A program made the position numbers and the translations under genes. Below, in pieces: positions 1-63,550 of a stretch of DNA of 64,000 nt. The DNA lies in contig JAJEKV010000059.1 in NCBI GenBank assembly GCA_021234155.1, positions 6,123,215-6,187,214 of the forward strand. Direction: 5' to 3'. The notes under the pieces were generated by a model. The model had not been told where the DNA came from. It saw nothing but the letters and a program-made list of their open reading frames with translations, and did not search any database. Source of the stretch: Isoetes taiwanensis. Its lineage: Eukaryota > Streptophyta > Lycopodiopsida > Isoetales > Isoetaceae. The number at the start of each line of letters is the position of its first letter. Position 1 is the stretch's first letter.

Positions 1-112
1 TAGTAACTTTTGGCTTATATCTCAATTGGTTAGGTAATATTAAAAGGAAGATGCGTACTCATATGGCTTGGTTCTGTGATTATATTGTTGATTATCAAAT
101 CAAAATTGCAAG

Positions 113-185
113 GCTCTCGTGGCCTAATGGATAAGGCATTTGACTTCTAATCAAGAGATTGTGGGTTCGAGTCCCATCGAGAGTG
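113..185 (+). tRNA. tRNA-Arg (UCU), copy 1
   Basis: A 73-nt cloverleaf reads AGA codons. The acceptor GCTCTCG pairs with CGAGAGT (one G-U), discriminator G, and the anticodon loop CTTCTAA gives anticodon TCT. The A box TGGCCTAATGG and B box GGTTCGAGTCC are present. No intron and no encoded CCA. No run of four T follows before the next Thr-like copy. Confidence 0.95.
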
Positions 186-240
186 TGCAAAAGAAAGTGG
201 AGGTGAAAGTGATATATGTTATTATAACTGAGGTGTTGAA

Positions 241-318
241 GCCGTGGTAGCTCGGGCTGTGTAGAGCACCCGCTTAGTAAGCTGGAGGTCTCGAAGTTCG
301 ACTTCAAATGGAAAAGCA
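241..318 (+). pseudogene. Decayed tRNA-Thr (AGU) copy
   Basis: The D arm reads CTCGGGCTGTGTAG and the T arm and acceptor no longer pair. The anticodon loop TTAGTAA is retained. It sits in the odd position of the unit, where every Thr copy is damaged. Confidence 0.75.
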
Positions 319-392
319 TATTTAAACAAAGCCGCGACTCATATGGATTGGTTTTGTGATTATATTGTTGATTATGAAATCAAAATTTGAAG

Positions 393-465
393 GCTCTCGT
401 GGCCTAATGGATAAGGCATTTGACTTCTAATCAAGAGATTGTGGGTTCGAGTCCCATCGAGAGTG
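393..465 (+). tRNA. tRNA-Arg (UCU), copy 2
   Basis: Identical 73-nt cloverleaf to copy 1. A run of eight T at 500-507, 35 nt downstream, is a plausible Pol III terminator before the Thr copy. Confidence 0.95.
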
Positions 466-523
466 TGCAAAAAGAAAGTGGAGGTGTAATTGATATATAT
501 TTTTTTTCAACAGAGGTGTTGAA

Positions 524-598
524 GCTTTTGTAGCTCAGCTTGGTTAGAGCACCCGCTTAGTAAGCTGGAGGTCTTGAGTTCGACTCTCAATGAAAGCA
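524..598 (+). tRNA. tRNA-Thr (AGU), nearly intact copy
   Basis: It differs from the intact Thr copies at 2350, 3272 and 4207 by one extra C in the D loop and one mismatch in the anticodon stem (GCTGG instead of GCGGG). The acceptor and T arm pair as in intact copies. It may be functional or newly inactive. Confidence 0.6.
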
Positions 599-930
599 AA
601 GTGATAATGGGCCTGCAAGGAGTTTCATTTCTAAACGATCAAATCTCTTTATTGATATGCTAGGAAGAAGTGACTTGTACTTGGTTGTTTTACCCAATAA
701 TGCTTCTCTTGATATTTTTTGCAACATGCATTACGATATGTTCTTCACTATTAAGTTTTTTTTCATTTAAGTGGCAATTGACTCGCGACCCTCATCTACA
801 TATTGCTATGGCAAGAGACCGACGAGAGAATGATTGTTTAGATTCAATTATCTTGGATATCTACTCATTTACGCCATCTACCGTGAATCTTTTCTTGCCC
901 ATAAGACGGGCTTTGACTACTAGTAGTAAC
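599..930 (+). repeat. Spacer of the tRNA array (first copy)
   Basis: This spacer recurs near 1525-1835, 2424-2750, 3346-3700 and 4281-4600. In most copies one frame reads through a short stretch containing NNASLDIFWQHALRC before a stop in a T-rich tract, so it may derive from a protein-coding gene. I do not recognise the product. Copy-specific small indels break the frame, so it is probably not coding now. Confidence 0.6.
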
Positions 931-1035
931 TTTTGGCTTATATCTCAATTGGTTAGGTAATATTAAAAGGAAGATGCGCATCATATGGCTTGGTTCTCAT
1001 GATTATATTGTTGATTATCAAATCAAAATTGCAAG

Positions 1036-1108
1036 GCTCTCGTGGCCTAATGGATAAGGCATTTGACTTCTAATCAAGAGATTGTGGGTTCGAGTCCCAT
1101 CGAGAGTG
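1036..1108 (+). tRNA. tRNA-Arg (UCU), copy 3
   Basis: Identical 73-nt cloverleaf with TCT anticodon; no T run follows before the decayed Thr copy. Confidence 0.95.
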
Positions 1109-1164
1109 TGCAAAAAGAAAGTGTAGGTGAAAGTTATATATGTTATTATAATCTGAGGTGTTGA

Positions 1165-1243
1165 AGCTGTGGTAGCTCAGTTGTGTAGAGCACCCATTTA
1201 GTAAGCGGGAGGTCTCGAAGTTCGACTCTCTCAATAAAAAGCA
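1165..1243 (+). pseudogene. Decayed tRNA-Thr (AGU) copy
   Basis: The acceptor 5' side is GCTGTGG, the anticodon stem is CCCAT/GCGGG, and insertions disrupt the T arm. The anticodon loop is still TTAGTAA. Confidence 0.75.
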
Positions 1244-1318
1244 TATTTAAACAAAGCCGCATACTCCTATGGATAGGTTTTGTGATTATAATGTTGATTA
1301 TGAAATCAAAGTTGGAAG

Positions 1319-1391
1319 GTTCTCGTGGCCTAATGGATAAGGCATTTGACTTCTAATCAAGAGATTGTGGGTTCGAGTCCCATCGAGAGTG
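1319..1391 (+). tRNA. tRNA-Arg (UCU), copy 4, variant acceptor
   Basis: Same gene with C2 changed to T (GTTCTCG), which replaces a C-G pair with a T-G wobble. Everything else matches. A T9 run at 1426-1434 may terminate transcription. Confidence 0.9.
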
Positions 1392-1450
1392 TGCAAAAAG
1401 AAAGTGGAGGTGTAATTGATATATATTTTTTTTTAAACAGAGGTGTTGAA

Positions 1451-1524
1451 GCTTTTGTAGCTCGGGCTTGGTTAGAGCACCCGCTTAGTAAGCGGGAGGT
1501 CTTGAGTTTGACTCAATGAAAGCA
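1451..1524 (+). pseudogene. Damaged tRNA-Thr (AGU) copy
   Basis: It occupies the even position that holds intact Thr genes elsewhere, and its anticodon arm CCCGC/GCGGG is perfect. The D arm has an insertion (CTCGGGCTTGG) and the T arm is shortened so that its stem is lost. Confidence 0.65.
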
Positions 1525-1942
1525 AAGTGATAATGGCCTTTTTAAGGAGTTTTCATTTCTAAACGCATCAAATCTCTTTATTGATATGCTAGGAAGAAGT
1601 GACTTGTACTTGGTTGTTTTACCCAATAATGCTTCTCTTGATATTTTTTGGCAACATGCATTACGATGTGTAGAGCACCCGTTTTTTTTCATTTAAGTGG
1701 CAATTGACTCGTGACCTCATCTACATATTGCTATGGCAAGAGACCGACGTGAGAATGATTGTTTAGATTCAATTATCTTGGATATCTACTCATTTACGTC
1801 ATCTACCGTGAATCTTTTCTTGCCCATAAGACGTAACTTTTGGCTTATATCTCAATTGGTTAGGTAATATTAAAAGGAAGATGCGTACTCATATGGCTTG
1901 GTTCTGTGATTATATTGTTGATTATCAAATCAAAATTGCAAG

Positions 1943-2015
1943 GCTCTCGTGGCCTAATGGATAAGGCATTTGACTTCTAATCAAGAGATTGTGGGTTCGA
2001 GTCCCATCGAGAGTG
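1943..2015 (+). tRNA. tRNA-Arg (UCU), copy 5
   Basis: Canonical copy. From here no run of four T occurs until 2330-2333, past the decayed Thr copy and Arg copy 6, so one primary transcript could span all three. Confidence 0.95.
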
Positions 2016-2071
2016 TGCAAAAGAAAGTGGAGGTGAAAGTGATATATGTTATTATAATCTGAGGTGTTGAA

Positions 2072-2145
2072 GCTGTGGTAGCTCAGTTGTGTAGAGCACC
2101 CGTTTAGTAAGCGGGAGGTCTAGAGTTCGACTCTCAAAGAAAGCA
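2072..2145 (+). pseudogene. Decayed tRNA-Thr (AGU) copy
   Basis: The length of 74 nt and the anticodon arm (CCCGT/GCGGG, loop TTAGTAA) are kept, but the acceptor GCTGTGG does not pair with AGAAAGC and the T stem has a mismatch. This is the least damaged odd-position copy. Confidence 0.65.
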
Positions 2146-2220
2146 TATTTAAACGAAGCCGCGTACTCCTATGGATAGGTCTTGTGATTATAATGTTGAT
2201 TATGAAATCAAAGTTGGAAG

Positions 2221-2293
2221 GCTCTCGTGGCCTAATGGATAAGGCATTTGACTTCTAATCAAGAGATTGTGGGTTCGAGTCCCATCGAGAGTG
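2221..2293 (+). tRNA. tRNA-Arg (UCU), copy 6
   Basis: Canonical 73-nt copy; TTTT at 2330-2333 follows before the intact Thr gene. Confidence 0.95.
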
Positions 2294-2349
2294 TGCAAAA
2301 AGAAAGTGGAGGTGTAATTGATATACTTGTTTTAAACAGAGGTGTTGAA

Positions 2350-2423
2350 GCTTTTGTAGCTCAGTTGGTTAGAGCACCCGTTTAGTAAGCGGGAGGTCTT
2401 GAGTTCGACTCTCAATGAAAGCA
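2350..2423 (+). tRNA. tRNA-Thr (AGU), intact
   Basis: A 74-nt cloverleaf reads ACU, and ACC after A34-to-inosine editing. Acceptor GCTTTTG pairs with TGAAAGC (two G-U pairs), discriminator A; anticodon arm CCCGT/GCGGG with loop TTAGTAA; T arm TTGAG/CTCAA with loop TTCGACT. A TATA-like stretch lies about 25-30 nt upstream. Confidence 0.92.
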
Positions 2424-2858
2424 AAGTGATAATGGCCTGCAAGGAGTTTCATTTCTAAACGCATCAAATCTCTTTATTGATATGCTAGGAAGAAGTGACT
2501 TGTACTTGGTTGTTTTACCCAATAATGCTTCTCTTGATATTTGGCAACATGCATTACGATGTGTTCTTCACTATTAATTTTTTTTTAGTTTAAGTGGCAA
2601 TTGACTCGTGACCTCATCTACATATTGCTATGGCAAGAGACCGACGTGAGAATGATTGTTTAGATTCAATTATCTTGGATATCTACTCATTTACGTCATC
2701 TACCGTGAATCTTTTCTTGCCCATAAGACGTGGCTTTGACTACTAGTAGTAACTTTTGGCTTATATCTCAATTGGTTAGGTAATATTAAAAGGAAGATGC
2801 GTACTCATATGGCTTGGTTCTGTGATTATATTGTTGATTATCAAATCAAAATTGCAAG

Positions 2859-2931
2859 GCTCTCGTGGCCTAATGGATAAGGCATTTGACTTCTAATCAA
2901 GAGATTGTGGGTTCGAGTCCCATCGAGAGTG
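2859..2931 (+). tRNA. tRNA-Arg (UCU), copy 7
   Basis: Canonical copy. Its 3' flank resembles that of even-position copies (GGAGGTGTAATTG) but lacks their T run, suggesting gene conversion or recombination between unit halves. Confidence 0.95.
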
Positions 2932-2988
2932 TGCAAAAAGAAAGTGGAGGTGTAATTGATATATGTTGTTATAATCTGAGGTGTTAAA

Positions 2989-3067
2989 GCTTTGGTAGCT
3001 CAGGCTTGTGTAGAGCACCCGCTTAGTAAGCTGGGAGGTCTCGAAGTTCGACTCTCAAATAAAAGCA
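2989..3067 (+). pseudogene. Decayed tRNA-Thr (AGU) copy
   Basis: Insertions in the D arm (CAGGCTTGTG), variable loop and T arm lengthen it to 79 nt. The anticodon loop TTAGTAA remains. Confidence 0.75.
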
Positions 3068-3142
3068 TATTTAAACGAAGCCGCAGACTCCTATGGATTG
3101 GTTTTGTGATTATATTGTTGATTATCAAATCAAAATTGCAAG

Positions 3143-3215
3143 GCTCTCGTGGCCTAATGGATAAGGCATTTGACTTCTAATCAAGAGATTGTGGGTTCGA
3201 GTCCCATCGAGAGTG
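3143..3215 (+). tRNA. tRNA-Arg (UCU), copy 8
   Basis: Canonical copy. Unlike other even-position copies its 5' flank (TTGTTGATTATCAAATCAAAA) is of the odd-position type. T8 at 3248-3255 follows. Confidence 0.95.
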
Positions 3216-3271
3216 TGCAAAAAGAAAGTGGAGGTGTAATTGATATATTTTTTTTAAACAGAGGTGTTGAA

Positions 3272-3345
3272 GCTTTTGTAGCTCAGTTGGTTAGAGCACC
3301 CGTTTAGTAAGCGGGAGGTCTTGAGTTCGACTCTCAATGAAAGCA
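3272..3345 (+). tRNA. tRNA-Thr (AGU), intact
   Basis: Identical in sequence to the intact copy at 2350, with all stems paired. Confidence 0.92.
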
Positions 3346-3802
3346 AAGTGATAATGGCCTGCAAGGAGTTTCATTTCTAAACGCATCAAATCTCTTTATT
3401 GATATGCTAGGAAGAAGTGACTTGTACTTGGTTGTTTTACCCAATAATGCTTCTCTTGATATTTTTTGGCAACATGCATTACGATATGTTCTTCACTATT
3501 AAGTTTTTTTTTCACTATTAATTTTTTTTTCGTTTAAGTGGCAATTGACTCGTGACCTCATCTACATATTGCTATGGCAAGAGACCGACGTGAGAATGAT
3601 TGTTTAGATTCAATTATCTTGGATATCTACTCATTTACGTCATCTACCATGAATCTTTTCTTGCCCATAAGACGTGGCTTTGACTACTAGTAGTAACTTT
3701 TGGCTTATATCTCAATTGGTTAGGTAATATTAAAAGGAAGATGCGTACTCATATGGCTTGGTTCTGTGATTATATTGTTGATTATCAAATCAAAATTGCA
3801 AG

Positions 3803-3875
3803 GCTCTCGTGGCCTAATGGATAAGGCATTTGACTTCTAATCAAGAGATTGTGGGTTCGAGTCCCATCGAGAGTG
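3803..3875 (+). tRNA. tRNA-Arg (UCU), copy 9
   Basis: Canonical copy. No TTTT occurs until 4183, so a transcript could include the truncated Thr copy and Arg copy 10. Confidence 0.95.
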
Positions 3876-3931
3876 TGCAAAAGAAAGTGGAGGTGAAAGT
3901 GATATATGTTGTTATAATCTGAGGTGTTGAA

Positions 3932-4000
3932 GCTTTGGTAGCTCAGTTGTGTAGAGCACCCGTTTAGTAAGCGGGAGGTCTCGAGTTCGACTCTAAGGCA
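3932..4000 (+). pseudogene. Truncated tRNA-Thr (AGU) copy
   Basis: The anticodon arm is perfect, but part of the T arm and most of the 3' acceptor strand are deleted, leaving 69 nt. Confidence 0.75.
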
Positions 4001-4075
4001 TATTTAAACGAAGCCGCGTACTCCTATGGATAGGTCTTGTGATTATAATGTTGATTATGAAATCAAAGTTAGAAG

Positions 4076-4148
4076 GTTCTCGTGGCCTAATGGATAAGGC
4101 ATTTGACTTCTAATCAAGAGATTGTGGGTTCGAGTCCCATCGAGAGTG
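4076..4148 (+). tRNA. tRNA-Arg (UCU), copy 10, variant acceptor
   Basis: Carries the same C2-to-T change as copy 4 (GTTCTCG); otherwise canonical. T8 at 4183-4190 follows. Confidence 0.9.
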
Positions 4149-4206
4149 TGCAAAAAGAAAGTGGAGGTGTAATTGATATATATTTTTTTTAAACAGAGGT
4201 GTTGAA

Positions 4207-4280
4207 GCTTTTGTAGCTCAGTTGGTTAGAGCACCCGTTTAGTAAGCGGGAGGTCTTGAGTTCGACTCTCAATGAAAGCA
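4207..4280 (+). tRNA. tRNA-Thr (AGU), intact
   Basis: Identical to the intact copies at 2350 and 3272. Confidence 0.92.
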
Positions 4281-4708
4281 AAGTGATAATGAGGAGTTTC
4301 ATTTCTAAACGCATCAAATCTCTTTATTGATATGCTAGGAAGAAGTGACTTGTACTTGGTTGTTTTACCCAATAATGCTTCTCTTGATATTTTTTGGCAA
4401 CATGCATTACGATATGTTCTTCACTATTAAGTTTTTTTTCATTTAAGTGGCAATTGACTCGTGACCTCATCTACATATTGCTATGGCAAGAGACCGACAG
4501 AATGATTGTTTAGATTCAATTATCTTGGATATCTACTCATTTACGTCATCTACCGTGAATCTTTTCTTGCCCATAAGATGTGGCTTTGACTACTAGTAGT
4601 AACTTTTGGCTTATATCTCAATTGGTTAGGTAATATTAAAAGGAAGATGCGTACTCATATGGCTTGGTTCTGTGATTATATTGTTGATTATCAAATCAAA
4701 ATTGCAAG

Positions 4709-4781
4709 GCTCTCGTGGCCTAATGGATAAGGCATTTGACTTCTAATCAAGAGATTGTGGGTTCGAGTCCCATCGAGAGTG
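4709..4781 (+). tRNA. tRNA-Arg (UCU), copy 11
   Basis: Canonical copy and last of the array. The unit breaks off at about 4985, inside the region that would lead to the next Arg gene. Confidence 0.95.
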
Positions 4782-4837
4782 TGCAAAAGAAAGTGGAGGT
4801 GAAAGTGATATATGTTGTTATAATCTGAGGTGTTGAA

Positions 4838-4914
4838 GCTGTGGTAGCTCGGGCTTGTGTAGAGCACCCGCTTAGTAAGCTGGAGGTCTCGAAGTTCACT
4901 CTCAAATAAAAGCA
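4838..4914 (+). pseudogene. Decayed tRNA-Thr (AGU) copy
   Basis: D-arm insertion (CTCGGGCTTGTG) and T-loop deletion (AGTTCACTCT) destroy the fold; the anticodon loop TTAGTAA is kept. Confidence 0.75.
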
Positions 4915-4980
4915 TATTTAAACGGCCGCTGCACTCCTATGGATAGGTCTTGTGATTATAATGTTGATTATGAAATCAAA

Positions 4981-5487
4981 GTTAGCTTATTATAATGTTT
5001 TTAGTTATTGTTTGGATCCAGCCCTAGATCGGACGTTTGAGTTAAAATATTAACTGTGCCTTTGATTTTTTTTTTCGCCTTGCTCGAAATGGTTCTCAAG
5101 CTATGGCCACACCTACTGAAAGGCTGCTTAGGGGTTAGTCCTTTTGTTTGTCAATACACCTTCGTGGTTCTCAGCTATGGCTTTCACCCGAGCCAAGTCC
5201 CCATCCTTTCTTCAGCCTCCCCCCTTTCAAGCTATGGTCAGTTTTGACCCGCGAAAGCACGTCGTAGGGGCCTTACTTCAACATGTCATCTCTTTTCGAG
5301 AATATTATACCCCGATTGGTTTAGGTGAGGAAGATCAAGGGGACGAGGATTCGACTGCGCTTTTGCTGTTAAACGGCACACTAAGATTGCCAGTAAATTT
5401 ATGTTCGAAGTTCTCAGAGGTGAAGATCACAAAAGCTGAGCAGAGAATAGATAATCCTTCTGTTGATGAGTCCCGGTAGATGCCACC
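4981..5487. other. Anonymous junction after the tRNA array
   Basis: The array ends abruptly near 4985. An open frame from 5144 to 5479 (111 codons) contains no motif I recognise. Confidence 0.3.
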
Positions 5488-5658
5488 ATGGCGGCAGATT
5501 CGTCATTGCATTATCACAGTTCTTTTCAGCTGCTTCTTAGGTTTCCTCATACCTTGCACGACCATCTCTCCTGCATCTATGTTATGTCTCATATAGCACC
5601 AGCGACCGACGGCCTATTGCTTTGCACGGCCATCTCTTCTGCATCTGCTACTAACAAG
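5488..5658 (+). other. Possible 5' exon of the zinc-finger gene
   Basis: An ATG at 5488 in good context (ccaccATGG) opens 57 codons ending in AAG followed by GTATGT, a strong plant donor. The next AG acceptor with recognisable coding sequence is at 6186. The peptide is not recognised, so assignment to the YY1-like gene is inference. Confidence 0.25.
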
Positions 5659-6186
5659 GTATGTTCTCTTTGTCTGGATCTTCATTAATGAGTTTCACAT
5701 TGGCAATGTGCATTTGATTTTTATTTAATTAGCTGCATGCAAGCCTGTTTATTGCGAAAATCATATGGGTTTTCTTCAGCACAACTTACAGCTAAAAAAT
5801 GCTTCAGCTGCAAAATAAGGGCCCTGTATATAGAGGAGCAGGGATGTTAGAAGCATGGATCTTTTAAGCTATTAGAGTTTGTCTTCCAAGCATGGATCTT
5901 TTGAATAAAAGGCAGGTTCCGGTAGACCATCAAGTTCTGCGTCCGCACAAACAGGTCGGTTTTGAGCTTTTGCGTTGAAACTCTGTACCTGTCACTAGGC
6001 AAATGGTTTCTTTCATTTCTTCGCAAATTTGTCTTTCTCATCCATCTTTTAGTACATGATAAATTAGTGAATTTTGTGGCATTTTTAGTATTGCAGTTTC
6101 CTGTATTATTTAGACTGTAACAAAGTCTTGGTTTTAGCATGCATGCCAAATGCATAAGCGCATTTTCTTATATTCATGTCTTGCAG

Positions 6187-6696
6187 GTTTTTCAGGGTGA
6201 CTCAGGATACTGTTCTTGGCAATGGGAAGTGCTCTTTATTGAAGTGGGTCAGTGGTAATCTCTTGAATTATGCTTGCATAATTGTCGTTTTGCAATCTTC
6301 ACCATTAGTCCAAAGAATTGACTTGAATTGTCCTTTTATAGATTTGATGGTTCTCATTTGGGTGGTGTTGTGTAATGTGCAGCGATTTATGGATAGTTCA
6401 AAGTTGAAGAGACATCATCTAATCCATATTGGAGAAAAACACTTCGTATGCAGTTTCGAAGGATGTAGAAAAGTAAGCTTTGTTCTGTTCAATATTATTT
6501 TGCATCTGAGTTTACCTGAGATCTTTTCTCATTAGTTTTAAATATCATTGAACCATAGGCATTCTCCCTTGATTTCAATTTGCGCAATCACATGAGGACG
6601 CACACTTTGGAGAACTACCATACGTGTACATATTGTGGCAAGCGATATGCTCATGAATACAAATTACGCAGTCATTTGACGGCACATCATGATAAG
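6187..6696 (+). pseudogene. YY1-like C2H2 zinc-finger gene, three exons of a probable fragment
   Basis: Exon 6383-6472 reads from RFMDSSKLKRHHLIH to EGCRK, and exon 6559-6696 from AFSLDFNLRNHMRTH to KLRSHLTAHHDK. Both are flanked by AG acceptors and GT donors and spell the C-terminal half of one C2H2 finger plus two full fingers. The order and wording match the plant YY1 family (Arabidopsis At4g06634), DNA-binding transcription regulators. A short upstream segment at 6187-6254 contains TQDTVLGNGKCSLLKWV, resembling the N-terminal part of that family. The exon with the first finger and the Cys pair of the second is not present between 6255 and 6382, and no exons for the rest are found before the Helitron starts. 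It may be a truncated gene, a Helitron-associated fragment, or a gene whose remaining exons lie beyond the Helitron. Confidence 0.75.
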
Positions 6697-7172
6697 GTAA
6701 TTGGTTTAATGTTTTAGCATCGTGCGAAAGATGACTCTGTGTTGCAGAAACTGATGCATTTGTCTCTGTGTTTGGATATTCATCTACAAAGTCTGATTGA
6801 TTAGGGCAGCAAGCATCTGCAGCCATATTATATATCTCAGATAACATTCTACATCCAAAGGTAAAAAGCTGATACAACCTATATTGAATGACTTTCCTTT
6901 CTGCGTCAAGCCAGATTGAGCATAGATTTGAATCTTTTTTTCAGATGTATATTAGAGCATTTAAAGGAGATCTTTGCAGCTATTTATAGTCTTTGTAGCG
7001 GTGTTTCTTGCTCGGGCATCAAGCTCGAGTTTGCTATTTCATTTCAAATATTTTGCATGAATCTTCTCATCCTATTTCCAACTGTAAATGGTATTAAATT
7101 TATGTCTACATGCTTTATGTTTAGTGGAAAAAAACCTTGCCAAATATACACCAAAATATACTAAAGGCTGGA
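6697..7172. other. Intron-like AT-rich DNA
   Basis: This is AT-rich sequence without a recognisable exon after the GT donor at 6697. Near its end the words ACACCAAAATATACTAAAGGC and a close variant occur in tandem (7147-7195), next to the candidate Helitron 5' end. Confidence 0.3.
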
Positions 7173-19726: not shown

Positions 19727-19758
19727 AGACATAATCCCAATTTAATTGAATGATGGTT
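19727..19758 (-). repeat. Right terminal inverted repeat (32 bp)
   Basis: Exact reverse complement of 7900-7931. It contributes an accidental ATG (19751) that opens the downstream Helitron reading frame. Confidence 0.92.
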
Positions 19759-19762
19759 GAGA
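19759..19762 (+). repeat. Target-site duplication GAGA, right
   Basis: Second copy of the GAGA found at 7896-7899, directly after the right TIR. Confidence 0.65.
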
Positions 19763-22700
19763 GTATTTACAAGAAAAGAAAGCTGCAACAGGCTACTAGA
19801 GAAACAGAAGAGGAGCATCAACAAAGATTGGACGAACTCGCACAATATCAACGCGAAATGAGAGCCCACCCATCTACATACAGAATAGCAAGGACGCTCG
19901 GGGTCACACAGGTAGAACGACACCACTGCGGCCCATTTAATAGGGAATGCATATACTGTAGGGCACTGTCATTCAAGGACGATGGTACAAATTGCTGCCA
20001 CGACGGACAAATCAAGTTGGAGCCTCTACAGCCAATGCCCCATCTAATTCAAAGATTACTGAACCACCAACACCCGAAAAGCACTAACTTTCACCAGCAC
20101 ATCAGGGCCTACAATAGTGCTCTTGCCTTTGCTTCCTTTGGCGCCAACATTGAACAATTTGGAGGACGGGGACCATACTGTTTCAAGATCCAAGGACAAA
20201 CCTACCATAGGGTTGGGCCAGCTTATGCCGATAATTCCGAGCCTGCAACATATTCCCAGCTTTACATTCTAGATGCGGACTATGCACATGAAGCACGAAC
20301 CCAAAATCCTCAAAATGTAAATTGCGATAGCGACCTTCTCAAAGAACTAGATGCCGAGCTACGCAATGTCAGTCCCTATGCATCAGCTCTCATGATGATG
20401 CACGAGGTAGAAGAACAGGCACAACGTTCAGGTGAAGGTGTGAAAGACATCAGGATGTACTTCAATGCTTCTCGAAACCTGGACCTTAGGAGATACAATC
20501 CAGCATGCTCAAACGAAGTTGCAGTAATATTTGTCAATGCAGACGGAGAGCCACCATTTGATAGGGACATCTGCATACATCAAAAGGGTGGCGGCCTCAA
20601 GAAGATCCCAATCACAAACCCAAATCTTGATCCCTTAGTTTACCCCATTCTCTTTCCCCTTGGTGACCAAGGCTGGAGCATAGGAATCAAGAAAGCGGAA
20701 ACATCTTCTACATCGACGTCTTCTAAGAAACATGAGCATGTGACTATGTTTCAATTCTACACCATCTCGCCAGCAAATAAGGAGGGAGATTGAACCCACC
20801 GCTTTATACCGCAAAGTTAACACAACAATTCATTGTTGACGGTACTCAAGAGTGGAAGCAAAACAATCTAAACCGATCAAACAAAATCAACCCGAAGTTA
20901 AGCAGTAGAGTTGTACCAAAGGTCTCATTGACTATATAGATCAAATTTTGGAAAGCAAAGAGGTTTAAGATCCCGCCCAAGTTGGTCATCCCGCCTTCTT
21001 CATACAATGGGAGCCCAAGAGCAATGCAACAAAACTACCAGATTCTATGGCCTTGATCCAAGATTTGGGAAAGTCAACCTCTTGTAACATTTACATCCAA
21101 CCCAAATTGGTAGAGATTACACACAACCTGCTACCGGACAACAAATGCGATGATAGGCCGATGAAGTTGTAATGCCAGATTTCACAAAGCTCAAAGAGTT
21201 CTTCCATGACCTATTCAAAATGATATCTTGGGCAAGGTGAAGGCACACACATACAAGATAGAGTTCCAAAAACCAGGCTTGCCACATTGCCATCTCCCTC
21301 ATGATTCTAACAACAAGAAGACAAGATCCGGAGATAAGCGAGGACATCGACAAAGATCAATGAAGCGCCGGTGATACCGTGCCCGTAAAACCGAACCCGC
21401 AAAGATCGCCAGGCATCAAGCATATGGTCCACGCCCCATCGCGGGCCCTCAACCCAAATGTTCCTTGTACGCAAAGCCAAGGAAGGCAGCCCAACCAAGG
21501 AATGCACAAAAGGATTTCAAAGCCATTTAATGACAATACCAAAGTCAACGCGAAATGGCTATCCGTCTGTACGAAGATCCGATATCGCCACTTCATGAGG
21601 GGCAACATGGCCTATTGACAACAGATGGGTAGTTCCCCACAATCAATGGCTGCTTGAAAAAGTGCACGCACATATCAATGTTGAGCGTTGTTTCAGTCGG
21701 TAAGAATGGAAGTATATCTATAAGTACATCCACAAAGGGCAACGACGCATCCATCAAGATCACCTAAGAACCAATGGGGAATCCACATCCACATTCAATT
21801 GGGACCCGAGGTAGCGGTATATCTTGACACGCAGATAACGCCTCTAAGAATTGAAGCCATGTGGAGGCTATACGGATTCAAGATGCATGGCAACTCCCAC
21901 ACGTACCGACACCTCGCCACCAATCCTACCAAACAACCAAGTTGTCTATTATCGGAAGGCCGCAAAGACAAGCCATCGAAATGCAAAAATGCAAAAGCAA
22001 ACAATGTTGGCGATGGTTTCCAACTCAACAAGGGGACGACCCAACGCATTATTGAATATACTTACCCGTAAATCCCCAAAGACTATATACATTCAATAGA
22101 TACGGGCGATCCGGAAAAAAGAGGGAGCGGAAGTTCAAGCTCATCACACGGATGTACAACGTGAGCCCTAAGGGATTCGGTGGATCGCCTTTTATCCGTC
22201 TCCTATTGTTAAGATATCAAGGGCGCAACCAGACATGCGCCTTGGTAATGGAAAAACTATGTTCAACATTCAAGGAAAGCCGCCAAAGAGCTCGGCTTAT
22301 TGGAAGACGATCTTTGAATGGGAGAAAGACGCAAGCGTCTTCGAGATATAATCCGGCCTACGCCCGGATATTCGCATTCATTTGCCTCATACAATGACCC
22401 CCAAGATCCAATGCGCTATGGGACCTCTTCAAGGACAACCCTACGTACCAGCGCATTTTTCACCGGCGGGCTTATTTATAACCATGCACCGGGCGACATC
22501 GGCGTCCTCTTCAAATGAGCGGTACGCACAACTTGGACGGGCTGCGAAACCGCGGATAGACATTCTTAGCCAATCTCCCAAATGAACCCACCTTCGATGC
22601 GTAAAAGGAGTTGAAAGAAGGGCAGAAAACTACGGAAAGCTCAACAGGGGGCAAACACATAGCCGACATTATCCTCGATGCAATCAGCCAACATCGAAGC

Positions 22701-38932: not shown

Positions 38933-38992
38933 GAATAGAATAGAATAGAATAGAATAGAATAGAATAGAATAGAATAGAATAGAATAGAATA
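38933..38992 (+). repeat. (GAATA)12 pentanucleotide microsatellite
   Basis: Sixty bases of perfect GAATA repeats, reading as TATTC repeats on the minus strand, at the 3' end of LINE B. Simple-repeat 3' tails are known for several non-LTR families. Confidence 0.97.
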
Positions 38993-55560: not shown

Positions 55561-57585
55561 GATGCCTAGGTGGCATGGTTGAGCCTAGGTGGGCATGCCC
55601 GATCCACCTGGCATAAGTCAGAGCCTAGGTGGTATGTTGGAGCCCACATGGTACGTTTGAGCCACCTTGGTGACACAGCCGGAGCCTGTGGTGGCATGTT
55701 GGAGCCTAGGTGGTACTGCTTGAGCCACCTTGCATGTTGGAGCCACCTTGGCATGTTTGTGCATGTTGGAGCCACCTGCGTTTGAGCCACCTTGGGAGCC
55801 TATATAGGTGGCATGTTTGTGCCACCTGGGAGCCTAGGTGGCATGTTTACCACCTTGTCATGTTGGAGCCTAGGTGGCATGTTGGAGCCTTTGTCATGTT
55901 GGAGCCACCTGGCATTGGCCCACTGGCATGTTGGAGCTCATCGGCATGTTTGAGCCACCTTGGCATTGAGCCTAGTTGGCATGTTGGGCCTAGGTGGCAT
56001 GTTTGAGCCTATAGCTGATGTTTGTGGCATGTTGGAGCCTAGGCATGTTGGAGCCACTTGCATGTTTGCCCACCTTGGAGCCTAGGGTACTGCCTGGAGC
56101 TTCACCTGTCATTGGAGCTCAGGGTGGTGGGCATGTTGGAGCCACCTTGTCATGTTGGAGCCTAGGTAGAAGGTTGGAGCCAACCTGGCATGTCAGAGCC
56201 AGGTGGCATGTTGGAGCCCATGTGGTGCATGTTTGAGCCACCTTGGCATGTTTTGAGCCTATGTGGCATGTTGGAGCCTAGTGGTATGTTTGAGCCACCT
56301 TGGCTGTTTGAGCCTATAGTGGCATGCTGTTGGAGCCTAGGTGAGCATGTTTGACACCCTGGCATGTTTGAGAATGCTGGAGCCTAGGTGGTGATGCTTG
56401 AGCCACCTTGTCATGTTGGAGCCTGTGTGGCATGTGTATGAGCCTAGGTGGTGATGTTTGAGCCAATCTTGGCATGTTTGCCTATATGTGGCATGTTGGA
56501 ACTTAGTGTAGACATGTTTGAGCCACCTTGGCATGTTGGAGCCTAGGTGGCATGTTGGAGCCCAGGTCACAAGTGGCATGTTTGAGCCACTCCAGATGCT
56601 TGAGCCACCTGGCATGTTGCCTAGGTGGCATGTTGGAGCCTAGATGTAGCGTTTGAGCCACCTTGGCATGTTGGAGCCTAGGGTGGCATGTTGGTTAACA
56701 TCGCAGAGTGTTTGAGCCACTCCCGCATGTTTGAGCCCAGGGTGGCATGTGGCGATTGGAGCTCAGAAGGTGATGTTGGAGCCCACGCAGTTATGCTCGG
56801 AGCCACCTTGGCATGTTGGAGCCTAGGTGGCCTGGAGACCGCTGGGCAGAGGTGAGCCACCTTGGCATGTTGGAGCCTGGTGGCATGCTTGGAGTCACCT
56901 TGGCATGTTGGAGCCTCATGTTTGAGCCACCTTGGCACGTTTGAGCCCAAGTGGTGCTGTTGGGAGCCTAGGTGAAAGCACGTTTGAGCCACCTTGGCAC
57001 GCTGGAGCCTAGTAGCATGCTGGCTCACGGTGATGCCTGAGCCACCTTGGCATGTTGGAGCCTAGGTGGCATGTTGGAGCCCGTGAACAGCATGTTCGAG
57101 CCACCTCAAGGCCTAGGTGGCATATTGGAGCCGCGGGTGGCACGTTTGGAGCCACCTTTGGCATGTTAGAGCTCAGAGGCATTTTGGGAGCCCGCCTGGC
57201 ATGTTGGAGCCCAGTGGCATGTTGTGAGCCACCTTGGCTGTTGGAGCCCTCAAGTGGCATGTTTGACACTGCATGTTTGACCGGGTGGCATGTTGGAGCC
57301 CAGGGTACATGTTTGAGCCACCTTGGGATGCTGGAGCCCAGGGTGGCATGTGTTGGAGCTCACGCGGCATGTTTGACATCTTGGCATGTTGATTCACATG
57401 GCATGTTTGAGCCACCTCATTGAGCCTAGTTGGCATGTGTTGGAGCCCACTGCAGCATGATTGAGCCACCTGGCATGTTGGAGCCAGGGTGGCATGTTGA
57501 GTCCATCGGCATGTTTGAGCCACCTTGGCATGTTAGGAGCCACCTCTTTGCATGTTATGAGGGTGGTACGTTTGAGTCCTTCAAG
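55561..57585 (+). repeat. Minisatellite of alternating 19-bp monomers
   Basis: Two related monomers, TTGGAGCCTAGGTGGCATG and TTTGAGCCACCTTGGCATG, alternate for about 2 kb (roughly 100 monomers), many with small deletions. Each monomer pairs in part with the other (CCTAGGTGG against CCACCTTGG), so single strands can fold repeatedly. All frames translate as GGMLEP- or LSHLGMLEP-like repeats by chance; I do not consider these proteins. Confidence 0.95.
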
Positions 57586-61284: not shown

Positions 61285-61356
61285 AGGAGGCAACCAGGTT
61301 TGAACTGATGACCTATTGGACTGCAGCCAATTGCTCTACCACTGAGCTATACCTCC
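61285..61356 (-). tRNA. tRNA-Cys (GCA), intact cloverleaf
   Basis: Read from 61356: acceptor GGAGGTA pairs with TGCCTCC (one T-G), D arm TAGCTCAGTGGTAGAGC, anticodon arm ATTGG-CTGCAGT-CCAAT giving GCA, T arm ATCAG/CTGGT with loop TTCAAAC. The discriminator is T. A box and B box are present, no intron. The acceptor and T stems differ from the usual plant nuclear and plastid tRNA-Cys that I know, so this may be a variant gene or a tRNA-derived repeat that still folds. Confidence 0.8.
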
Positions 61357-61746
61357 ATAAAAAATAAATTTACAAGAAAACAAGAAGTCGAATAAATCTT
61401 ATTGAGACAATTATATCATTTGAATTGGCCCATTGCAACAACAACATATGTTTTAAGTTAAATAGTAAGAATATTCCATGCTAGTTTAAACATCACTTGT
61501 TTCATAATGTGTTTGCACACCATTTTTTCCATGCTCGAAATTTACGCAAATAATTGCCACCGTCCGAGAATTGCTGTTTGTGGAGTTCCAATTTAATTTG
61601 TCATAGGCTTGTGGCTACTGTTTGAAGTTCTTGATAATTTGTCACATGGGGGTAGAAATGAGAAGTATTTAGGCATAAACGCTTAAGATAATCTTAGTAA
61701 AAGAGAAGATAGGGAAAGGGATTGCACTATCAAGATCTAGCTAAAC

Positions 61747-61822
61747 GTAGGCAACCAGGTTTGAACTGATGACCTATTAGATTGTGGTAGCCAATTACTC
61801 TACCAATCGAAGCTATACCTCC
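61747..61822 (-). pseudogene. tRNA-Cys copy 2, decayed
   Basis: Insertions enlarge the D loop and the anticodon arm; the GCA position reads CACA. The 5' acceptor and T arm are recognisable. Confidence 0.7.
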
Positions 61823-62248
61823 ATAGAAAACAAATTTGAAAGTCAAAACAAGAAGTCAATAAATCTTATTGGAGATTAACCACATCATTTGAATTGGCTC
61901 CATTGCAAACAGTACCATGTTTTAAGTTAAATAGTAAGAATATTCCATGCTAGTTTAAACATCACTTGTTTCATAATGTGTTTGCACACCATTTTTCCAT
62001 GTCGTAAATTTACTTAGCCAATTGCCACTCTGGCCCCAGAATTGCTATTTGTGGAGTTCCAATTTAATTTGTCATAGGCTTGTGGCTATTGTTTGAAGTT
62101 CTTGATAGCCAAGTAGTTGAACTTTTTGAATCTCCATCCAATTTGTCACATGGGGGTAGAATTGAGAAGTATTTAGGCATAAACGCTTAAGATAATCTTA
62201 GTAAAAGAAAAGACAACGAAAGGGATTGCACTATCAAGACGAGCTAAA

Positions 62249-62323
62249 GGAGGGGCAACTGGAAGCTTGAACTGATGACCTATTGGATCAAGAGCCACTG
62301 TTTCTACCATGAGCTATACCTCC
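62249..62323 (-). pseudogene. tRNA-Cys copy 3, decayed
   Basis: The anticodon arm is replaced by unrelated bases (GGATCAAGAGCC on the plus strand) and the T arm has an insertion. Confidence 0.7.
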
Positions 62324-62735
62324 ATAGAAAACAAATTTGCAAGTCAAAACAAGAAGTCGAATAAATCTTATTGAGACAACTATATCATTTGAATTGGCCC
62401 ATTGCAACAACAACATATGTTTTAAGTTAAATAGTAAGAATATTCCATGCTAGTTTAAACATCACTTGTTTCATAATGTGTTTGCACACCATTTTTTCCA
62501 TGCTCGAATTTCTACGAAATAATTGCTACCTGGCCTCGAGAATTGTCAAGCTAGGAGTTCCACTCACTTTGTCATAGACTTGTGGCTATCAAGCTGAAGT
62601 TTTGATAGCAAGTAGTTGAACTTTTTGAATCTCCATCCAATTTATCACATGGGGGTAGAAATGAGAAGTATTTAGGCATAAACGCTAAAGATAATCTTAA
62701 CAGCGCAAGGGATTGCACTATCAAGACGAGCTAAA

Positions 62736-62804
62736 GGAGGCAAAGCTCGAATCGATGACCTATTGGACTCGTACCAATTGTTTTACCATCGAAGCTATAC
62801 CTCC
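62736..62804 (-). pseudogene. tRNA-Cys copy 4, decayed
   Basis: The anticodon region reads GGACTCGTACCAATTG on the plus strand and the T arm is shortened. Confidence 0.7.
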
Positions 62805-63225
62805 ATAAAAATAAATTTACAAGAAACAAAAAGCTCTATCAAATTCATTGAGACAATTATATCATTTGAATTAGCCCATTTGCAACAACAACATGTGTTT
62901 CTAAGTTAAATAGTAAGAATATTCCATGCTGGGCTTAAACATCACTTGTTTCATAATGCTTGCACACCATTTTTTCCATGTTCTAAATTTTACTAAATAA
63001 TTGCCACTGGCCCCAGAATTTATTTCAGGAGTTCAATTCTAATTTGTCATAGGCTTCTTGTATACCTGCTCTAAGTTCTGATAGTAAAGTAGTTGAACTT
63101 TTTGAATCTCCATCCAATTAATTGTCACATGGGGGTAGAAATGAGAAGTATTTAGGCATAAACGCTTAATCTTAGTAAAAGAGAAGATAGGGAAGGGATT
63201 GCACTCATCAAGACGAAAGCCAAAA

Positions 63226-63300
63226 GGGAGGCAAAACTGTGTTTGAAACTCCATTTCGACCTATTAGGATTGTGGTGCCACTTTGCTCTCTACCCACCAT
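63226..63300 (-). pseudogene. tRNA-Cys copy 5, decayed
   Basis: Multiple insertions; only the T-loop region and part of the anticodon arm can be aligned. Confidence 0.6.
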
Positions 63301-63550
63301 AGAAACAAATTTGCAAGTCAAAACAAGAAGTCGAATAAATCTTATTGAGACAACTATATCATTTGAATTGGCCCATTGCAACAACAACATATGTTTTAAG
63401 TTAAATGGTAAGAATATTCCATGCTAGTTTAAACATCCCTTGTTTCATAATGTGTTTGCACACCATTTTTTCCATGCTCGAAATTTACGCAAATAATTGC
63501 CACCTGCCTCAGAATTGCTATTTTGTGGAGTTCAATTTAATTTGTCATGG

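What the first reader, a model, noticed from the sequence alone, without database searches (positions are those of the whole stretch)
1..4980. Tandem tRNA-Arg(UCU)/tRNA-Thr(AGU) array with a two-level repeat structure
Eleven Arg and at least three intact Thr genes lie in about 910-930-bp units that are themselves duplicated halves. Mixed-isotype tandem arrays are rare; this may change the supply of an AGA-reading tRNA.
Basis: partly seen in the sequence, partly recalled or inferred. Interest (0 to 1): 0.75.

Follow-up and report, generated by a model that had tools for sequence, protein, structure and literature searches.

The report
Amplified tRNA-Arg/tRNA-Thr gene arrays in quillwort
A nuclear genome that is very probably that of the quillwort Isoetes taiwanensis carries hundreds of copies of a tRNA-Arg/tRNA-Thr gene pair, mostly in tandem arrays, of which this window shows a small part; such tRNA arrays are known in other plants, but this pairing and scale, and the better preservation of the Arg genes than of their surroundings, are worth a test of expression.

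Summary
The array is real. The window holds 11 tRNA-Arg(UCU) and 11 Thr(AGU)-like genes (6 called by ARAGORN) in 906-944-bp units of two unequal Arg+Thr halves plus a spacer. It is a fragment: the genome has 249 copies of the Arg core (up to 3 mismatches) and 114 of the Thr core, on at least six contigs, against three non-array Arg(UCU) genes found. Assembly size points to Isoetes taiwanensis (1658.30 Mb, nanopore-based). Four small isolated places have different endpoints, which speaks against a TRIM or SINE; unequal exchange plus dispersal of DNA fragments fits best. Private differences between units pile up at CpG and its neighbours, with many transversions and gaps, as nanopore errors at methylated cytosines would, so part of the apparent decay may be error and the array is probably methylated. 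Outside CpG, Arg bodies vary 2.6-fold less than flanks; Thr bodies do not. I read it as a mostly silenced tDNA array of the Arabidopsis SYY kind whose Arg genes stay functional-grade. A changed AGA-tRNA supply is untested. New member of a known kind; a tRNA-Ile(UAU) family is also amplified in this genome.

The parts
1..4985 (+). Right-hand part of the array: five A+B units (the first cut at its left end by the window start) and a truncated sixth, 906-944 bp apart; continues left of the window
113..185 (+). tRNA-Arg(UCU), A position, unit 1
393..465 (+). tRNA-Arg(UCU), B position, unit 1
1036..1108 (+). tRNA-Arg(UCU), A position, unit 2
1319..1391 (+). tRNA-Arg(UCU), B position, unit 2, C2>T
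1943..2015 (+). tRNA-Arg(UCU), A position, unit 3
2221..2293 (+). tRNA-Arg(UCU), B position, unit 3
2859..2931 (+). tRNA-Arg(UCU), A position, unit 4
3143..3215 (+). tRNA-Arg(UCU), B position, unit 4
3803..3875 (+). tRNA-Arg(UCU), A position, unit 5
4076..4148 (+). tRNA-Arg(UCU), B position, unit 5, C2>T
4709..4781 (+). tRNA-Arg(UCU), A position, truncated unit 6
524..598 (+). tRNA-Thr(AGU), B position, unit 1, altered (54.8 bits)
1451..1524 (+). tRNA-Thr(AGU), B position, unit 2, altered (45.3 bits)
2350..2423 (+). tRNA-Thr(AGU), B position, unit 3, intact (63.5 bits)
3272..3345 (+). tRNA-Thr(AGU), B position, unit 4, intact (63.5 bits)
4207..4280 (+). tRNA-Thr(AGU), B position, unit 5, intact (63.5 bits)
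241..318 (+). Thr-like, A position, degenerate (unit 1); ends read by eye
1166..1243 (+). Thr-like, A position, degenerate (unit 2); ends read by eye
2072..2145 (+). Thr-like, A position (unit 3), 38.7 bits, not called by ARAGORN
2989..3067 (+). Thr-like, A position (unit 4), called by ARAGORN, not by Rfam at its gathering score
3932..4000 (+). Thr-like, A position (unit 5), 35.3 bits, not called by ARAGORN
4838..4914 (+). Thr-like, A position, degenerate (truncated unit 6); ends read by eye
2424..2748 (+). Spacer of unit 3: no long open frame in the spacer consensus; all 41 listed matches of window 2440-2740 lie on array-bearing contigs (40 of 214 candidates scored)
4985..4986 (.). Right edge of the array: the sequence departs about 3 bp before the expected B-position Arg of unit 6 (by eye)

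Best explanation
It is a nuclear tandem tDNA array, very probably of Isoetes taiwanensis. A neighbouring tRNA-Arg(UCU)/tRNA-Thr(AGU) pair was duplicated to a dimer (halves A and B), joined to a ~326-bp spacer, and the ~918-bp unit was amplified head to tail by unequal exchange, partly homogenised within loci, and scattered as DNA fragments to other sites (structure shown; mechanism and order of events inferred). The array is probably cytosine-methylated and mostly silent, like the Arabidopsis Ser-Tyr-Tyr cluster (inferred). Its Arg genes keep cloverleaf, internal promoter regions and upstream TATA/CAA elements and vary less than their surroundings, so they can probably still make an AGA-reading tRNA in some tissue or condition; the Thr genes are drifting (difference in variation measured, expression inferred).
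For: 249 Arg cores and 114 Thr cores at up to 3 mismatches, reversed controls 0. 56 complete units of 871-959 bp align to one 918-column consensus. Mean unit identity within C1066 is 0.959 and within C1079 0.963, against 0.948 between them (0.950 within C526); 11 sites separate C1079 from the rest, none in an Arg gene. Array Arg differs from a dispersed gene (C1018) at 7 sites, which include two compensatory pairs (5/68 and 28/42, C-G to U-A). In 72 spacer-chosen segments the private-substitution rate away from CpG in Arg bodies is 0.39 of flanks (bootstrap 0.14-0.64) and 0.25 of Thr (0.10-0.43); Thr/flank is 1.53 (0.93-2.10). CAA within 12 nt upstream in 74 of 76 A and 64 of 75 B Arg genes; a TATA-like word in 75 of 76 and 74 of 75. 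Private substitutions are highest at CG of 16 dinucleotides (0.049, next 0.028), CG neighbours 0.041, with 76 transitions, 67 transversions and 58 gaps at CG. Nanopore consensus errors concentrate at 5mC motifs, shown for bacterial Dcm sites (Wick 2019, PMC6591954, passages).
Against: No expression, methylation or read data were available. A-position Arg genes have no T4 run until a median of 310 nt downstream (B: 34 nt), while the three non-array Arg(UCU) genes have one within about 10 nt. The Arg effect shrank from 0.14 of the spacer (Arg-chosen units) to 0.39 of flanks (spacer-chosen); 3 of 72 segments, all from C526, carry 32 of the 46 Arg changes. Short-read polishing may have homogenised the most repeated stretch. 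Of 104 changed acceptor-stem cells, gaps aside, 59 break the pair; without pair 2-71, where 27 are one C2>T type, 58 of 75 do. On the error reading: transitions are somewhat commoner at CG (76:67) than far from it (198:280), shared plus private variants at CG are transition-rich (164:89), and the CpG excess is weak in C1066 (0.032 against 0.018) compared with C1079 and C526; real deamination, which also implies methylation, contributes. A tRNA-Ile(UAU) family is amplified too, which speaks for a general tendency rather than for Arg supply.
Confidence: 0.55

Rival explanations
1. A purely selfish or neutral tDNA satellite: amplified by unequal exchange, silent, with no role in tRNA supply.
For: A second tRNA family is amplified in the same genome; no T4 run within 50 nt behind 74 of 76 A-position Arg; Thr genes not less variable than flanks; 59 of 104 changed acceptor-stem cells break the pair.
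Against: Arg bodies less variable than flanks and Thr under both ways of choosing units; promoter-type upstream elements kept in nearly all copies.
Confidence: 0.35
2. Assembly artefact: over-expansion, duplicated haplotypes or misjoined nanopore contigs.
For: The presumed assembly is miniasm/racon/pilon on R9.4.1 reads (PMC8566536, passages); private variants look partly like consensus errors; C526 (92.6 kb) and C638 (72.6 kb) are small contigs; unit 2 holds a Thr-like piece inside its spacer.
Against: The C1066 and C1079 clusters lie inside contigs of 9.2 and 7.4 Mb; the right flank 4990-6900 matches full-length only itself, with no listed match on C1079 (40 of 118 candidates scored); 11 diagnostic sites separate C1079.
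Confidence: 0.06
3. A mobile element: a Helenus-type TRIM with tRNA-like LTRs, or a tRNA-derived SINE.
For: Helenus can inflate predicted tRNA counts and form tandem arrays; its only characterised plant host is a lycophyte, Selaginella (PMC10886601, outline, passages and sections 3.4-3.5). Dispersed fragments exist.
Against: Four small isolated places (C423, C908, C1066:5.39 Mb, C1079:0.11 Mb) hold different pieces of the unit; array Arg aligns end to end with the dispersed gene. No primer-binding site at 10 of 11 bases for the four tRNAs tried, though one reached 9 of 11, so this point is weak.
Confidence: 0.03

Closest known systems
Arabidopsis tRNA Ser-Tyr-Tyr (SYY) cluster
   Same: Tandem mixed-isotype nuclear tDNA units; one isotype occurs twice per unit; major sequence plus minor and pseudogene copies; clustered gene type largely distinct from the dispersed type; CG and CHG methylation reported there, inferred here
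   Different: Arg(UCU)/Thr(AGU) instead of Ser/Tyr; no introns; an unequal dimer plus spacer; several clusters on several contigs; very probably a lycophyte host; no expression data
Cpu (bryophyte) multi-isotype tRNA tandem repeats (PMC12652284)
   Same: Two or three tRNA genes repeated together, up to 37 times, in a seed-free plant
   Different: Ala/Leu and Val/Glu/Phe units in the figure shown; copies of one isotype there are reported 100% identical
tRNA-Pro and maize tRNA-Ile clusters (PMC11700998)
   Same: Tandem tDNA clusters with at least 3 genes per kb
   Different: Single isotype
Helenus TRIM elements (PMC10886601)
   Same: High-copy tRNA-like sequences, partly in tandem; one plant family, in Selaginella
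   Different: Two LTRs, primer-binding site and 5-bp duplications (plants) define them; common termini were not found here

Membership tests
Plant tandem tDNA cluster | At least 3 tDNAs per kb (definition in PMC11700998, passages) | tested here: met
   11 Arg + 6 Thr called by ARAGORN in 113-4781, 3.6 per kb
Plant tandem tDNA cluster | Repeated combination of isotypes in one order | tested here: met
   Arg-Thr-Arg-Thr-spacer in 56 complete units
SYY-like silenced cluster | Clustered gene type distinct from the dispersed type | tested here: met
   7 differences between the array Arg and the dispersed C1018 Arg(UCU) gene
SYY-like silenced cluster | High CG/CHG methylation | tested here: inconclusive
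   CpG-focal variants rich in transversions and gaps fit nanopore 5mC error; no methylation data, no control region
SYY-like silenced cluster | Silent in most tissues, reactivated in some | not testable with these tools
   no RNA data
Helenus TRIM | Two LTRs with primer-binding site and polypurine tract between them | tested here: inconclusive
   best PBS match 9 of 11 among only four tRNAs tried, one of them from recall; the polypurine tract was not tested
Helenus TRIM | Common termini with 5-bp target-site duplications | tested here: not met
   four small isolated places have different endpoints; one shows a ~22-nt direct repeat. Only four such places were looked at
tRNA-derived SINE | Fixed 5' tRNA head, tail and target-site duplication | tested here: not met
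   four small isolated places have different ends, and the C423 piece starts about 30 bp before the Arg gene

The most novel reading that the evidence does not exclude
The array is a dedicated, selected source of an AGA-reading tRNA: the 249 array-type Arg genes outnumber the three non-array ones found by about eighty to one and could be the main tRNA-Arg(UCU) source in a tissue or stage, made partly from unusual tricistronic precursors, because the first T4 run behind most A-position Arg genes lies after the B-position Arg. A special use such as import into mitochondria, which in Isoetes have lost tRNA genes (PMC3325193, passages), is conceivable and untested.
Probability: 0.17. Interest if true: 0.75.

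Novelty: new member of a known kind. Interest (0 to 1): 0.45.

Why it matters
What plant tDNA clusters are for has been answered in part for Arabidopsis SYY. A lycophyte array of this size, with one isotype less variable and the other drifting in the same unit, gives a built-in control: if Arg copies are maintained because they are used, array-specific tRNA-Arg should be found charged somewhere, and array Thr need not be. It also warns that tRNA gene counts from nanopore assemblies of tandem arrays may mix real pseudogenes with methylation-linked sequence errors. The related Isoetes sinensis was annotated with 8,975 tRNA genes (PMC10541799, passages), not explained in the passages read.

Tried and rejected
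Haplotype duplication: rejected, because the right flank matches full-length only itself and no listed match lies on C1079. Helenus/SINE: rejected mainly on the differing endpoints; the primer-binding-site test was weak. Simple C-to-T decay at methylated CpG as the only source of variation: not favoured, because at CpG private transitions, transversions and gaps number 76, 67 and 58 and neighbours are hit too; a modest transition excess remains and variants counted with the shared ones are transition-rich, so some decay is likely real. A first estimate (Arg/spacer 0.14) was inflated by choosing units through Arg hits; I replaced it by spacer-chosen segments. Compensatory change inside the array: acceptor-stem changes break pairs in 59 of 104 cells. 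A Helitron protein search to place the organism was uninformative, perhaps because the length limits leave out long plant proteins; an rbcL pattern and assembly statistics were used instead. The rbcL protein search did not name the genus: among 17 rows at E <= 1e-300 the best identities were 95% to one EukProt entry and 94% to several, named Musa, Allium, Fissidens and Rhynchospora.

Literature searched for this array in print: (listings with titles and starts of abstracts). I saw no Arg/Thr array and no Isoetes tRNA array named there; the library lacks most subscription papers, and supplementary tables could not be read.

Full report
Observation. ARAGORN reports 11 tRNA-Arg(UCU) and 6 tRNA-Thr(AGU) in window 113-4781, all on the + strand. 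Rfam agrees for all 11 Arg and gives 7 Thr above its gathering score, three of them at 63.5 bits. Every Arg is followed by a Thr-like sequence, so there are 11 Thr-like copies, several degenerate. The unit is about 918 bp: half A (Arg, Thr-like), half B (Arg, Thr), then a spacer of about 326 bp. A-to-A distances are 923, 907, 916, 944 and 906 bp; A-to-B 273-284 bp. The two halves align over most of their length (the top of the printed alignment was cut).

Where it is. The window is C1066:6123215-6187214 of a genome of 1,658,258,908 bases in 1110 contigs. It has plant rbcL copies, one of them intact, on C840. The published Isoetes taiwanensis assembly measures 1658.30 Mb in 204 scaffolds and 909 contigs and was made from R9.4.1 nanopore reads with miniasm, racon and pilon (PMC8566536, passages). 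I take this as the source. The match rests on size and nearly on contig number (1113 against 1110), and on the rbcL looking lycophyte- or fern-like from recall; the protein search did not name the genus.

Extent. The 65-nt Arg core has 249 places at up to 3 mismatches, control 0; the Thr core has 114, control 0. Of the 249 Arg places only the first 100, all exact, are listed; they lie on C423, C526, C638, C908, C1066 and C1079. Non-array Arg(UCU) genes found by a 43-nt pattern: three, on C1018, C978 and C1089. Four listed Thr cores (C1018 twice, C1048, C1059) carry a different T-arm and lie outside the array clusters; I did not fetch them. In 192,571 fetched bases plus the window (254,785 bases in eight merged stretches), BLAST finds 186 Arg and 178 Thr hits; 66 and 29 are full-length and exact. 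Four small places outside the big clusters (L030, L032, L033, L034) hold pieces of the unit with different ends, and a fifth (L031, on C638) is a stretch of array. The one on C423 is a single Arg-Thr pair between two copies of a ~22-nt sequence (read by eye), which suggests insertion of a DNA fragment at a break.

The Arg gene. It differs from the dispersed C1018 gene at seven positions: 5 C>T with 68 G>A, 28 C>T with 42 G>A (two compensatory pairs), 26 G>A, 43 A>G and 65 C>T (read). Rfam gives 68.6 bits against 73.0. This suggests that the progenitor diverged while its cloverleaf was kept. Upstream CAA and TATA-like elements are present in nearly all copies. Terminators are unusual: the first T4 run is a median of 34 nt behind B-position Arg (75 copies) but 310 nt behind A-position Arg (76 copies; 18 further copies unclassified), so an A transcript could run through Thr-A and B-Arg. 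The three non-array genes have T runs within about 10 nt (by eye). Among 168 of 169 Arg hits of at least 60 nt (one lay too near an end), 68 match the reference in all kept columns and 15 differ by C2>T alone.

Variation. In 56 complete units, private substitutions (alleles below 12%) are most frequent at CpG (0.049; other 15 dinucleotides 0.011-0.028) and at its neighbours (0.041). At CpG there are 76 transitions, 67 transversions and 58 gaps, against 198, 280 and 290 far from CpG; deamination alone would give mostly transitions. The excess is clear in C1079 and C526 and weak in C1066. With shared variants included, CpG changes are transition-rich (164 to 89), so real deamination contributes as well. 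Nanopore basecallers of that time made systematic consensus errors at a 5mC motif, the bacterial Dcm site (Wick 2019, PMC6591954, passages), and short-read polishing is weak in repeats (my inference). Hence part of the degenerate look of the array is probably error, and either way the array is probably methylated. I had no control region of known methylation.

Constraint. Leaving out positions within 4 nt of a CpG, Arg bodies carry 7 private substitutions in 86 sites x 56 units, the spacer 141 in 250 x 56 (ratio 0.14); none of 489 windows of 73 nt outside Arg was as low. This choice of units favoured intact Arg. Chosen through the spacer instead (72 of 80 segments; 8 of odd length dropped), the ratio Arg/flank is 0.39 (0.14-0.64) and Arg/Thr 0.25 (0.10-0.43); Thr/flank is 1.53 (0.93-2.10); three C526 segments carry 32 of the 46 Arg changes. 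So Arg varies less and Thr does not. Homogenisation by exchange or by polishing could add to this, though Thr, repeated twice per unit as well, shows no such effect.

Concerted evolution. Units are more alike within C1066 (0.959) and C1079 (0.963) than between them (0.948); within C526 the value is only 0.950. Eleven sites separate C1079 from the others, none in an Arg gene. A stretch of C1079 has a Thr(CGU) anticodon in place of Thr(AGU), and a few Arg copies carry a UUU anticodon (2 of 168).

Known kinds. The nearest relative in kind is the Arabidopsis SYY cluster: tandem, mixed isotype, methylated at CG and CHG, mostly silent but expressed in root cap cells (PMC12308677, abstract and two sections). 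A 50-species survey names ten clusters with repeated mixed isotypes, from three species, and clusters of up to 110 genes (PMC12652284, passages). I found no Arg/Thr case in print in the searches named under Tried and rejected. Helenus TRIM elements, known in Selaginella, can mimic tRNA expansions, but the four isolated places lack common termini.

Verdict. A real, large member of a known kind, not seen in print within my searches. Function as a reserve or special source of tRNA-Arg(UCU) is plausible, not shown.

Noticed in passing
G000:C1101 (1-18 kb, 111-178 kb), C1018:5.02-5.05 Mb, C1021:260-281 kb, C1074:7.46 Mb: A second amplified tRNA family, tRNA-Ile(UAU), in repeated units; 21 places within 3 mismatches of one core; the Rfam search scored only 63 of 99,846 candidates, so its full size is unknown. 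Only three short stretches (6.2 kb) were read.
   Followed up: partly
G000:C1079:4790-4797 kb, 4908 kb, 4914 kb: Copies in which the Thr anticodon reads CGU instead of AGU.
   Followed up: no
L033 489-561, L016, L026: Arg-array copies with anticodon UUU (called tRNA-Lys by ARAGORN).
   Followed up: no
L030 (C423:475.7 kb): A single Arg-Thr pair inserted between two copies of a ~22-nt sequence, like a repaired break.
   Followed up: partly
window 4990-6900: Flank is a mosaic of pieces found separately elsewhere (for example 862-1061 of the query at 100% on C933), with a zinc-finger stretch that resembles plant YY1 from recall.
   Followed up: partly
window 19750-20793: Open frame of 347 aa similar to Helitron helicase-like proteins.
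   Followed up: partly
window 61636-63548: Another tandem repeat of about 470-500 bp, 78-93% alike, next to a tRNA-Cys(GCA) at 61285.
   Followed up: no
window 55692-57561: Long diverged minisatellite with units of about 19 bp.
   Followed up: no
window 38933-38992: Perfect (GAATA)x12.
   Followed up: no
window 1668-1685: Unit 2 has a short Thr-like piece inside its spacer, a template switch or a consensus chimera (by eye).
   Followed up: no
G000:C840:19969, C1052:5417263, C1076:3146835: Three rbcL-like copies: one intact, one open but without its ATG, one that stops matching after the first residues.
   Followed up: no
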